This document shows positions 17,583 through 36,599 of a stretch of 58,165 bases of DNA, one piece after another. The notes beneath the pieces were generated by a model. That model had not been told where the DNA came from. It saw only the letters and a program-made list of their open reading frames with translations, and ran no database searches. Both the position numbers and the translations under genes were made by a program. The number at the start of each line of letters is the position of its first letter. The first letter of the stretch is position 1. This DNA is from Ferrimicrobium sp. (GTDB lineage Bacteria > Actinomycetota > Acidimicrobiia > Acidimicrobiales > Acidimicrobiaceae). Location: the NCBI GenBank assembly GCA_022690815.1, contig JALCZJ010000015.1, forward strand, positions 1 through 58,165, written 5' to 3'.

Positions 17583-17647
17583 TACCTCCCCCTGTTACAC
17601 TACTAGATGCACTTGTCACACGTAGCTTGAGTCGCTACGACAGGGCA

Positions 17648-17693
17648 GAGATGAGCACAGGGCCGAGATAAGCACAGGGCCGAGATGAGCAAA
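17648..17693. repeat. 17-bp tandem repeat, 2.7 copies
   Basis: Units GAGATGAGCACAGGGCC (17648-17664), GAGATAAGCACAGGGCC (17665-17681) and a partial GAGATGAGCA (from 17682) lie directly before the ribosome-binding site of the lipoprotein gene. The copies differ by one base. A duplication in the leader could alter expression; it is outside coding sequence if translation starts at 17709. Confidence 0.7.
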
Positions 17694-35059: not shown

Positions 35060-35085
35060 CTAAGCTACTCGAAGACTGTTGTCTG

Positions 35086-35158
35086 GCCCGGGTAGCTCAG
35101 CCGGTAGAGCAGCTCACTCGTAATGAGCAGGTCAGGGGTTCGAATCCCCTCTCGGGCT
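35086..35158 (+). tRNA. tRNA-Thr (anticodon CGT), CCA not encoded
   Basis: A 73-nt cloverleaf. Acceptor GCCCGGG (35086-35092) pairs with CTCGGGC (35151-35157) with one G-T wobble, followed by discriminator T. The anticodon stem GCTCA/TGAGC closes loop CTCGTAA with anticodon CGT, reading ACG (threonine). The T-arm AGGGG-TTCGAAT-CCCCT is canonical. No CCA is encoded, unlike the tRNA-Pro of the window. The anticodon is well supported. Confidence 0.95.
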
Positions 35159-35373
35159 CTGAGAACCAGTCGGGTTTATCCTTGACTGTATTGGAGCACA
35201 GTTTTGGAGCCAAGCGTTGGAAGCCAGCGTTCGCGCTGCGTGTTCGAGCAAGATAACCGAGATTCGGCCGAGGGTGAGCAGTTCGGAGGGGGGCGTGTTG
35301 GGTCCATGTAGGTATGTACCCATACGGGTTGGGTCCGTATCGTGGTTGACGAATCGACGAGGAACGCACGCAA

Positions 35374-35447
35374 GGCCTGGAACCAAATGGATGACCTGGA
35401 ACCGAATGGAAGACCTGGAACCGAATGGAAGACCTGGAACCGAATGA
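35374..35447 (+). repeat. 19-bp tandem repeat (about 4 copies) carrying GGAAC
   Basis: Units begin at 35374, 35393, 35412 and 35431. The second and third are identical (GACCTGGAACCGAATGGAA), the first differs by three bases and the last is shortened. Each contains GGAAC, the -35 element of SigR/SigH-type promoters, at 35379, 35398, 35417 and 35436. The array ends 30 nt before the sigR-like start. The stretch from 35159 to 35373 shows nothing else that I recognise. Confidence 0.85.
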
Positions 35448-35460
35448 CCGGGCATTCGTA
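35436..35460 (+). promoter_or_regulatory. Candidate SigR-type promoter for the sigma factor gene
   Basis: GGAA (35436-35439), 18 nt and GTA (35458-35460) approximate the GGAA-N18/19-GTT consensus of SigR/SigH promoters. Transcription would start near 35468, about 10 nt before the GTG at 35478. This would give autoregulation, as known for SigR; only the last repeat has the right spacing to a -10. Confidence 0.5.
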
Positions 35461-35477
35461 CAATGATGGGATCGTGA

Positions 35478-36065
35478 GTGGCAGATAAAAAGAATTTCTC
35501 GTCGGACGCCATGCAATACACCGAGAATCTGTATTCGGCAGCGCTACGGATGACCCATAATCCTGCCGATGCCGAAGACCTGGTACAGGAGACCTTCTTG
35601 AAGGCGTACCGAGCGTACGAATCCTTCCAGGCGGGAACCAACCTCAAGGCGTGGCTCTACAGGATTTTGACCAATACCTATATCAACATCTACCGTGCCA
35701 AGAAGCGGCGTCCAGACGAGAGTAATCTTGAGGACGTGGAGGATCTCTACCTTTATCGGCGCCTTGGCGGACTTGAGGCTGTTGCGGCTGGCCGCAGCGC
35801 TGAGGAAGAGGTCCTCGATCGGATCACCGATACCGATGTTAAGGCGGCGATCGACTCCCTGCCCGAACAGTTTCGGTTGGCCGTTGTCCTCTCCGACATC
35901 GAAGGCTTCTCATACAAAGAGATCGCTGAGATCATGGATGTGCCATTAGGTACCGTGATGAGTCGGCTCCATCGGGGAAGAAGAGCCATGCAACGAGCGT
36001 TACTGGAATTAGAGCTTCGTAAGGCTGCCGTCGGTGGTGGCCCCGAAGAGGGTAACTTTTCGTAA
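35478..36065 (+). CDS. sigR: ECF sigma factor, SigR/SigH type
   Basis: A 195-aa ECF sigma factor. Region 2 contains [20 protein letters not shown] followed by [20 protein letters not shown]; region 4 has [20 protein letters not shown] then [20 protein letters not shown]. This region-4 wording ([15 protein letters not shown]) is characteristic of the actinobacterial SigR/SigH (ECF12) group that answers thiol-oxidative stress. The next gene encodes a zinc-binding anti-sigma factor with the RsrA motif, confirming the pairing. It starts with GTG 35478, with a weak ribosome-binding site and a short leader. The GGAAC repeat array lies upstream. Confidence 0.9.
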
Positions 36066-36073
36066 GGATCATC

Positions 36074-36370
36074 ATGAATATGGATGCTTTGAGAACAACA
36101 GACGGTGAACCGGAGTCTGAGGAGTGCCGCAAGGTTATCACTCAGCTCTATGAGTTTCTCGACAGCGAGCTCACTGATGAGCGGCGTGAGCGGGTCCGCG
36201 AACATCTCGATCATTGTGGTTCGTGCCTTGAGGCCTTCGAGTTCGAGGCCGAACTCCGTGCAGTCATCGTCTCGCGTGCGAAAGAACAGGTTCCAGAGAG
36301 CCTGATGCACAAACTCGCCATGCTGATCGAAGAAGAAGAACGGCTTACGCCGAATCAAAGTTCGGAATAG
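36074..36370 (+). CDS. rsrA: Zinc-binding anti-sigma factor (RsrA-like)
   Basis: A 98-aa ZAS-domain anti-sigma factor. Ligands are C18, H44, C48 and C51 (H-x3-C-x2-C in EHLDHCGSC), the same arrangement as RsrA, where disulfide formation under oxidants releases zinc and frees SigR. The C-terminal half is helical and wraps the sigma factor. The start codon is 8 nt after the sigR stop, so they are cotranscribed. It should hold the upstream sigma inactive in reducing conditions. Confidence 0.9.
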   Translation: MNMDALRTTDGEPESEECRKVITQLYEFLDSELTDERRERVREHLDHCGSCLEAFEFEAELRAVIVSRAKEQVPESLMHKLAMLIEEEERLTPNQSSE

Positions 36371-36398
36371 TTCTAATCTTTGAATAGTTGTAAGTTGC

Positions 36399-36599
36399 AT
36401 GCCACACGGAGGGGATGAAATCGTAAACGTTCCAGATCCAGCTGGAACTGGGCGCCCAGCCCGAACCTTTGCCAAAGGTCGAGTGTGCCAAGAACCGGGA
36501 TGCGGTACCGCACTGTCGATCTACAACAAAGGAAAGTACTGCTACTTGCATGAACCTCTTGTAGTTCCACGGACGCGGGGTCGCAAGAAAATAGCCTAA
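36399..36599 (+). CDS. Small zinc-ribbon-like protein
   Basis: A 66-aa protein with the compact motif CQEPGCGTALSIYNKGKYCY followed by LH: a C-x4-C...C-x2-H set like the C-C-G-T-x-L-S-x-Y-N-x-C-x-x-H signatures found in small actinobacterial proteins and some HTH regulators. A basic tail (RTRGRKKIA) may bind nucleic acid. It follows rsrA by 28 nt, so it could belong to the redox-stress operon. The ribosome-binding site is weak; a GGAGGGG lies inside the frame rather than before the ATG, so the start is uncertain. Confidence 0.65.
   Translation: MPHGGDEIVNVPDPAGTGRPARTFAKGRVCQEPGCGTALSIYNKGKYCYLHEPLVVPRTRGRKKIA

What the first reader, a model, noticed from the sequence alone, without database searches (positions are those of the whole stretch)
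35374..35460. Tandem array of four GGAAC elements upstream of sigR
Four 19-bp repeats each place GGAAC, the SigR/SigH -35 element, 19 bp apart, ending in one GGAA-N18-GTA promoter for the sigR-like gene. Multiple -35s at near-two-turn spacing could titrate or hand over the sigma factor, or be iteron-like sites for another regulator. I know of no such array in described sigR promoters. The sigR-rsrA identity is well supported; the array's function is inference.
Basis: partly seen in the sequence, partly recalled or inferred. Interest (0 to 1): 0.7.

Follow-up and report, generated by a model that had tools for sequence, protein, structure and literature searches.

The report
Species-private repeat upstream of sigR
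A short DNA sequence repeated four times in front of a stress-response gene is real but looks like a chance duplication seen in one species only, while the control switch that evolution seems to have kept lies inside the gene itself, in front of the gene for its inhibitor.

Summary
The array is real: four 19-bp units (35374-35449), GGAAC at 35379, 35398, 35417, 35436, plus a fifth GGAAC at 35361. The sigR-rsrA identity holds. The promoter-array reading does not: the array is absent from 6 of 6 congeners, units 1-3 have no -10, and unit 4 has only GGAAC-N17-GTA against the consensus GGAAY-N18-GTT. Other GGAAC arrays of this period in the order lie away from sigR, and this genome has other short-period arrays. 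I read it as a species-private minisatellite.

The SigR-type element that is conserved lies inside sigR, before rsrA: GGAAG-N18-GTT at 35976-36001. It occurs in 43 of 48 Acidimicrobiia-type sigR genes (0.15 expected from codon usage) and 2 of 59 other actinobacterial ones; an upstream GGAAN-N17-19-GTT shows the reverse pattern, 6 of 48 against 56 of 59. Its -35 lies in codons of the sigma factor's own -35-recognition helix. Such an internal promoter is proven in Corynebacterium glutamicum (PMC5483222, passages); I found no report of its deep conservation in the listings I saw. Transcription was not tested.

The parts
35086..35159 (+). tRNA-Thr (cgt), the upstream neighbour
   Evidence: ARAGORN; the same tRNA 3' end precedes sigR in all 6 congeners, 104-134 bp before it, against 318 bp here
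35361..35365 (+). degenerate fifth GGAAC, 18 bp above the first unit's GGAAC
35374..35392 (+). array unit 1 (GGAAC at 35379)
35393..35411 (+). array unit 2 (GGAAC at 35398)
35412..35430 (+). array unit 3, identical to unit 2 (GGAAC at 35417)
35431..35449 (+). array unit 4, last three bases differ (GGAAC at 35436)
   Evidence: consensus from passages
35459..35464 (+). TACAAT, possible housekeeping -10 for sigR (inference only)
   Evidence: read from the sequence; fits the TANANT of C. glutamicum SigA promoters quoted; the sigma-70 scan reports no site here
35478..36065 (+). sigR-like ECF sigma factor gene, GTG start
35976..35980 (+). -35 (GGAAG) of the conserved internal SigR-type element, inside the codons of HRGR
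35999..36001 (+). -10 (GTT) of the internal element, N18 after GGAAG; predicted start near 36010, 64 nt before rsrA
   Evidence: start position inferred
36074..36370 (+). rsrA-like zinc anti-sigma factor gene
   Evidence: TIGR03988 68.5 bits over cut-off 62.5, zf-HC2, RsrA 5frf

Best explanation
The array is a young minisatellite. A 19-bp stretch next to the sigR start was duplicated head to tail in this species after it split from its nearest sampled relative, as other short stretches in this genome have been. It is not a bank of working SigR promoters; GGAAC is carried along because it is part of the unit. sigR itself is most likely transcribed by housekeeping polymerase from a promoter just before its GTG, perhaps with -10 TACAAT (inferred). 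SigR feedback in this operon most likely acts inside sigR: GGAAG-N18-GTT at 35976-36001 starts a transcript near 36010 that carries rsrA without sigR, so freed SigR makes more of its own inhibitor. Shown here: the sequences, the absence of the array from the congeners, and conservation of the internal element against codon bias. Inferred: duplication by slippage, transcription starts, sigma dependence and sign of feedback, the last three by analogy with C. glutamicum PrshA.
For: Array absent from 6 of 6 congeners, where sigR follows the tRNA after 104-134 bp instead of 318. At the place of the last GGAAC the alignment reads GTAGC, GTAGC, GTGGC, GCGGT, GCGGT and GCGCT in the six, and none has the GTA. 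Units 2 and 3 are identical over all 19 bp, as expected of a recent duplication. No -10 for units 1-3, off-consensus for unit 4. In the order 12 of 397 genomes have three GGAACs at 19-bp spacing, 7 the reversed control; none of the loci held for the 11 others has sigR within about 1.5 kb, and 10 of those 11 are ordinary 19-bp tandem arrays with other units. A 400-kb hand-picked sample of this genome has four other arrays of score 120 or more, one between a SigR-type promoter and trxB. Internal element: 7 of 7 genus genomes, 43 of 48 Acidimicrobiia-type loci against 0.154 expected, 17 of 18 at GC3 of 0.8 or more against 0.0096 expected; its three defining codons are the three most deviant of 124 columns. 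The same -35 (GGAAGA) and arrangement are a proven sigma-H promoter in C. glutamicum (passages and sections).
Against: GGAAC is in every unit, on sigR's strand, next to the gene whose product should read GGAAY; a random 19-bp unit of the window holds GGAAC with probability 0.015. The differences between units spare GGAAC. The last unit is only two steps from a consensus promoter. The internal -35 has G, not C or T, at its fifth base, so it is not a perfect box either, although sigma-H promoters with G there are reported and PrshA is one. GGGAAY-N18-GTT sites are not enriched genome-wide over the reversed control (13 against 22 here). Three of the 48 loci have both elements, so the two are not exclusive.
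Confidence: 0.72

Rival explanations
1. A multi--35 SigR promoter: the extra GGAAC boxes hold SigR polymerase or hand it over to the last unit, raising or buffering sigR autoregulation.
For: GGAAC in all four units plus a fifth at 35361; the sigma factor has the -35-contacting residues of SigH; upstream SigR-type promoters are usual in other actinobacteria (56 of 59).
Against: No -10 for units 1-3; GTA at N17 for unit 4, whereas PMC6411747 reports loss of activity on changing almost any -35 or -10 position and on altering the spacer (passages). Absent from 6 of 6 congeners. 19 bp is not a whole number of helical turns (about 1.8, arithmetic). Upstream SigR-type sites are uncommon in Acidimicrobiia-type loci (6 of 48).
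Confidence: 0.08
2. Operator repeats for another regulator that controls sigR from a housekeeping promoter.
For: Direct repeats directly above a possible -10 TACAAT would suit an activator or repressor.
Against: Within 3 mismatches the 17-base core is found 10 times outside the array, each with 3 mismatches, so there is no sign of a shared operator; not in any congener; no inverted repeat in 35160-35480; 19-bp spacing does not keep one face of the helix (arithmetic). The repeat of the L131 array, also upstream of sigR, is unrelated.
Confidence: 0.12
3. An RNA element: transcripts coming from upstream fold over the repeats and affect sigR translation.
For: Read-through from the tRNA-Thr upstream is possible; no terminator-like site was found in 35060-36420.
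Against: 35280-35490 folds no better than shuffles (z +1.5; 190 of 200 shuffles fold at least as well); no inverted repeats.
Confidence: 0.03

Closest known systems
Bacterial intergenic minisatellite (tandem repeat)
   Same: Near-identical head-to-tail units, between genes, absent from relatives
   Different: Copy-number variation between strains could not be tested; the unit happens to hold a SigR-like -35
Corynebacterium glutamicum PrshA, sigma-H promoter internal to sigH (PMC3489674 sections, PMC5483222 passages)
   Same: For the internal element: inside the sigma gene, before the anti-sigma gene, -35 GGAAG(A), -10 GTTA, predicted start 64 nt before rsrA against 62-66 nt there
   Different: Proven there, only predicted here; whether PrshA uses the same HRGR codons was not checked; conservation across a class and beyond is the new part
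Streptomyces sigRp2 and rsrAp (PMC5472188 passages)
   Same: sigRp2 is a SigR autoregulatory promoter upstream of sigR; rsrAp is a promoter internal to sigR
   Different: No consensus SigR promoter lies upstream of sigR here; the passages seen do not say which sigma factor reads rsrAp, and the one Streptomyces-sized genome examined (L285) lacks the GGAAG-N18-GTT element

Membership tests
SigR/SigH-type promoter (array, last unit) | -35 GGAAY | tested here: met
   GGAAC at 35436
SigR/SigH-type promoter (array, last unit) | spacing N18 (18-19 in C. glutamicum) between GGAAY and GTT | tested here: not met
   N17; one passage gives N17-18 for the GGAAC class in C. glutamicum, so this alone is not decisive
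SigR/SigH-type promoter (array, last unit) | -10 GTT | tested here: not met
   GTA
SigR/SigH-type promoter (array, last unit) | conserved in relatives | tested here: not met
   neither GGAAC nor GTA at the aligned place in 6 of 6 congeners
SigR/SigH-type promoter (array, last unit) | SigR-dependent transcription start | not testable with these tools
   no transcript data
SigR/SigH-type promoter (internal element) | GGAA-N18-GTT | tested here: met
   GGAAG-N18-GTT at 35976-36001; fifth base G, not C or T
SigR/SigH-type promoter (internal element) | conserved beyond what the protein requires | tested here: met
   43 of 48 against 0.154 expected; top three of 124 codon columns
SigR/SigH-type promoter (internal element) | SigR-dependent transcription start | not testable with these tools
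   analogy with PrshA only
SigR (TIGR02947 SigH_actino) | score over the curated cut-off | tested here: not met
   239.9 bits against 251.55; it is the best NCBIfam hit all the same
SigR (TIGR02947 SigH_actino) | -35-contacting residues of SigH | tested here: met
   nine of nine (chain numbering is offset by two from the paper's, my inference)
RsrA (TIGR03988) | score over the curated cut-off and HxxxCxxC | tested here: met
   68.5 bits against 62.5; HxxxCxxC ORF after sigR
Minisatellite | near-identical head-to-tail units of more than about 9 bp | tested here: met
   19 bp x 3.9, 92% matches
Minisatellite | copy number varies between strains | not testable with these tools
   one genome per species is held; absent altogether from 6 of 6 congeners

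The most novel reading that the evidence does not exclude
Across much of the Actinomycetota outside the Streptomyces- and Nocardioides-like lineages, the codons for the DNA-recognition helix of SigR (HRGR) contain the very -35 box that this helix reads: a self-encoded promoter that drives the inhibitor gene rsrA without sigR, kept against strong codon bias. Lineages that lack it mostly carry a SigR-type promoter upstream of sigR instead, so the feedback was rewired in evolution. In this species the minisatellite grew at an upstream site that SigR does not use.
Probability: 0.65. Interest if true: 0.6.

Novelty: new member of a known kind. Interest (0 to 1): 0.4.

Why it matters
It sets aside a tempting promoter-array story and offers a testable one about where SigR feedback sits in these bacteria. 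If the internal promoter works in Acidimicrobiia and other deep lineages, the sigR-rsrA loop there is wired as inhibitor feedback rather than as amplification, and a protein's DNA-reading helix and its target site are written in the same bases. That would be a clean system for asking how a stress circuit is rewired while its proteins stay the same.

Tried and rejected
SigR promoter array: set aside for lack of -10 elements and of conservation. Shared operator: the unit core is not found elsewhere in the genome with fewer than 3 mismatches. RNA element: no unusual fold, no terminator. Repeat protein: ORFs of 171, 139 and 95 aa on the minus strand and 76 aa on the plus strand overlap the array; the period is no multiple of three and the congeners lack the DNA, so I did not pursue them. 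Genome-wide regulon search with GGGAAY-N17-SGTT led nowhere: hits (both strands) against reversed control were 13/22, 23/23, 9/18, 11/20, 18/16, 15/20 and 10/16 in the 7 genomes. trxB was informative: GGGAAT-N18-GGTT before it in this genome and in 3 of 6 congeners, none within 400 bp in the other 3; in two of those 3 a weaker second family match has GGAAT-N18-GGTT at -370. One search printed minus-strand loci in the wrong orientation; one search repeats it correctly and is the one used. The sigma-70 scan found nothing in the region, so TACAAT is inference. Literature: a search for tandem repeats with sigR, promoter, anti-sigma and Streptomyces found 0 papers; Ferrimicrobium with sigma factor 0 papers.

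Full report
Observation. The array is there. TRF gives a 19-bp unit, 3.9 copies, at 35372-35446, score 129, the best of 25 rows in the window. In the finding's register four units fill 35374-35449. GGAAC lies at 35379, 35398, 35417 and 35436, and once more at 35361, 18 bp above. In the genome (2,544,086 bases, 60 contigs) GGAAC pairs 19 bp apart occur 7 times, 3 of them here, against 16 for the reversed control pattern. The 17-base core with up to 3 mismatches occurs 14 times (control 4); only the 4 copies in the array have fewer than 3 mismatches.

Genes. 35478-36065 is a SigR-like ECF sigma factor: best NCBIfam hit TIGR02947 (239.9 bits, under the cut-off of 251.55); closest PDB sequence Mtb SigH, E 5.1e-59. 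36074-36370 is an RsrA-like zinc anti-sigma factor (TIGR03988, 68.5 bits, cut-off 62.5; RsrA 5frf, E 1.4e-8). The nine residues that PMC6411747 names as contacting the -35 DNA in Mtb SigH (passages) are all present (the chain numbering is offset by two, my inference). One genome of its family, G012, has a single contig of 2,158,157 bases, which I recall as Acidimicrobium ferrooxidans; the genus of the window was not established.

Is it a promoter array? SigR/SigH promoters read GGAAY-N18-GTT: PMC3489674 quotes the Mtb, S. coelicolor and C. glutamicum consensus (passages and sections 6 and 11); PMC10012870 gives GGAAC-N17-18-cGTT and GGAAt-N18-19-GTT (passages). PMC6411747 reports that Mtb SigH polymerase is most active with a 17-bp spacer after the hexamer, which I read as N18 after GGAAY, and that changes at almost every -35 and -10 position abolished activity (passages). 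Here units 1-3 have no GT-type -10 at N16-N20, and unit 4 has GTA at N17. For comparison, trxB in this genome is preceded by GGGAAT-N18-GGTT, as in 3 of 6 congeners; in the other 3 none was found within 400 bp. The pattern is not enriched genome-wide (13 hits against 22 for the reversed control), so a motif match alone proves little.

Congeners. The database returned 6 other genomes of the genus. In all 6 the same tRNA 3' end precedes sigR by 104-134 bp, against 318 bp here, and none has the array. In the SigR tree the window pairs with G005 (support 99/83). In the alignment of the region before sigR none of the six has GGAAC at the place of the last unit's GGAAC (GTAGC in G005 and G002, GTGGC in G006, GCGGT in G001 and G004, GCGCT in G003), and none has the GTA. 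So neither half of the candidate promoter is conserved.

Background. Of 397 genomes of the order, 12 including this one hold three GGAACs at 19-bp spacing; I count 7 genomes with the reversed control in the same table. Loci of at most about 3 kb were held for 20 of the 29 listed matches, covering all 12 genomes but not a second contig of G197. In 10 of the 11 others TRF shows a 19-bp tandem array with a different unit, and only the two window loci hold sigR. In 20 hand-picked stretches of this genome (400 kb, about 16%) TRF finds four distinct arrays of score 120 or more with other units; by a rough ORF test three of them overlap no ORF of 100 aa or more and one does. One, 18 bp x 4.5, lies between the SigR-type promoter and trxB. 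Over 107 distinct sigR loci only one other array above score 60 lies within 400 bp upstream, in L131, and its unit has no GGAAC.

The conserved element inside sigR. Scanning the operon of the 7 genus genomes for GGAAN-N16-20-GTT/GTA/GTC showed one element shared by all 7 at one place: GGAAG-N18-GTT, 498 bases into sigR (35976-36001). Its predicted start near 36010 lies 64 nt before the rsrA ATG. I then compared 110 sigR loci: 30 from the order search and 80 named loci from GTDB genomes, the best 80 of 570 confirmed relatives. Three duplicates were dropped. I called 48 of 107 Acidimicrobiia-type (the 30 from the order search plus those of L124-L144 that were not duplicates; the tree makes these 48 one branch, 98/87, with L145 beside it; one, L143, bears a Bifidobacterium title); 59 are others, mostly Nocardioides, Geodermatophilaceae, Micromonosporaceae, Pseudonocardiaceae and the like. 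All 107 have a downstream ORF with HxxxCxxC. The internal element is in 43 of 48 (41 with GGAAGA, 2 with GGAAGG) and in 2 of 59 (L145, L156). An upstream GGAAN-N17-19-GTT within 400 bp of sigR is in 6 of 48, including a TGGAAG site at -259 in the window that I take for chance, and in 56 of 59. Both are present in 3 of 48 and 1 of 59, neither in 2 of 48 and 2 of 59. Of the 5 Acidimicrobiia-type loci without the internal element, L028 and L029 have GGAAT-N18-GTT at -72 and -73, L142 a weaker N19 site, L141 and L144 none. The 59 are those most like the window SigR, not a random sample.

The internal element is not a by-product of the protein. Drawing synonymous codons from each gene's own usage outside the motif, 0.154 hits are expected in the 48 and 43 are seen; for the 18 with GC3 of 0.8 or more 0.0096 are expected and 17 seen; for the 59 others 0.048 expected and 2 seen. 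Ranking 124 amino-acid columns of the 48 by how far codon choice departs from gene-wide usage puts the three defining codons on top: R168 (AGA 43 of 48, AGG 3), L175 (TTG 27, TTA 18 of 48) and G167 (GGA 47 of 48); the 59 others show no such outlier in 132 columns. Every hit had N18; 16, 17, 19 and 20 were allowed and not seen. These loci are related, so the counts are not independent. The tree needs 5 changes of the trait; its bootstrap had not quite settled and several long branches are flagged.

Breadth. In 296 genomes drawn from the phylum a pattern for HRGR codons followed by GTT at N18 matches in 96, against 7 for the reversed control by my count of the table; 80 of the 96 translate like the sigma helix, 19 of 27 in the window's class and 61 of 269 elsewhere. 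I followed up 20 genomes, 11 chosen for having the pattern. Two had no sigR match, one weak match (G554) was not examined, and of the 17 loci examined 12 have the internal element (the 11 chosen ones and G592) and 5 do not; 3 of those 5 have an upstream GGAAT or GGAAC with N18-19 and GTT.

Known counterparts. In C. glutamicum rshA has a sigma-H promoter internal to sigH with -35 GGAAGA and -10 GTTAAA, starts 62 and 66 nt before rshA, sigma-H-specific in vitro and in vivo (PMC3489674 sections; PMC5483222 passages). In S. venezuelae a 300-bp fragment upstream of rsrA, internal to sigR, has promoter activity (PMC5472188 passages). I found no report of this element in Acidimicrobiia, of its conservation across the phylum or of its overlap with the recognition helix in the listings, which in part show only the top of a longer list; the library holds open-licence papers only.

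Conclusion. The element worth following in this operon is the one inside sigR. Transcription, sigma dependence and sign of feedback are inferred and need the bench.

Noticed in passing
window 35976-36001: GGAAG-N18-GTT inside sigR before rsrA, conserved against codon bias in 43 of 48 Acidimicrobiia-type loci; its -35 lies in the codons of the -35-recognition helix.
   Followed up: yes
L242 16883-16966 (own genome, just upstream of trxB): A second array, 18 bp x 4.5, between a GGGAAT-N18-GGTT site and trxB.
   Followed up: partly
L131, within 400 bp upstream of sigR: Another array upstream of a sigR gene, 38 bp x 2.4 with a 19-bp half-period, score 175, no GGAAC in the unit.
   Followed up: no
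L028 and L029, 72-73 bp upstream of sigR: A sister pair in the same family that lacks the internal element and carries an upstream GGAAT-N18-GTT instead, a possible natural rewiring.
   Followed up: partly
window 35294-35305 and 35325-35336: A 12-bp direct repeat (CGTGTTGGGTCC / CGGGTTGGGTCC) 31 bp apart in the same long intergenic region.
   Followed up: no
window 17640-17691: A 17 bp x 3.1 tandem array, score 90, at the edge of a 277-aa plus-strand ORF.
   Followed up: no
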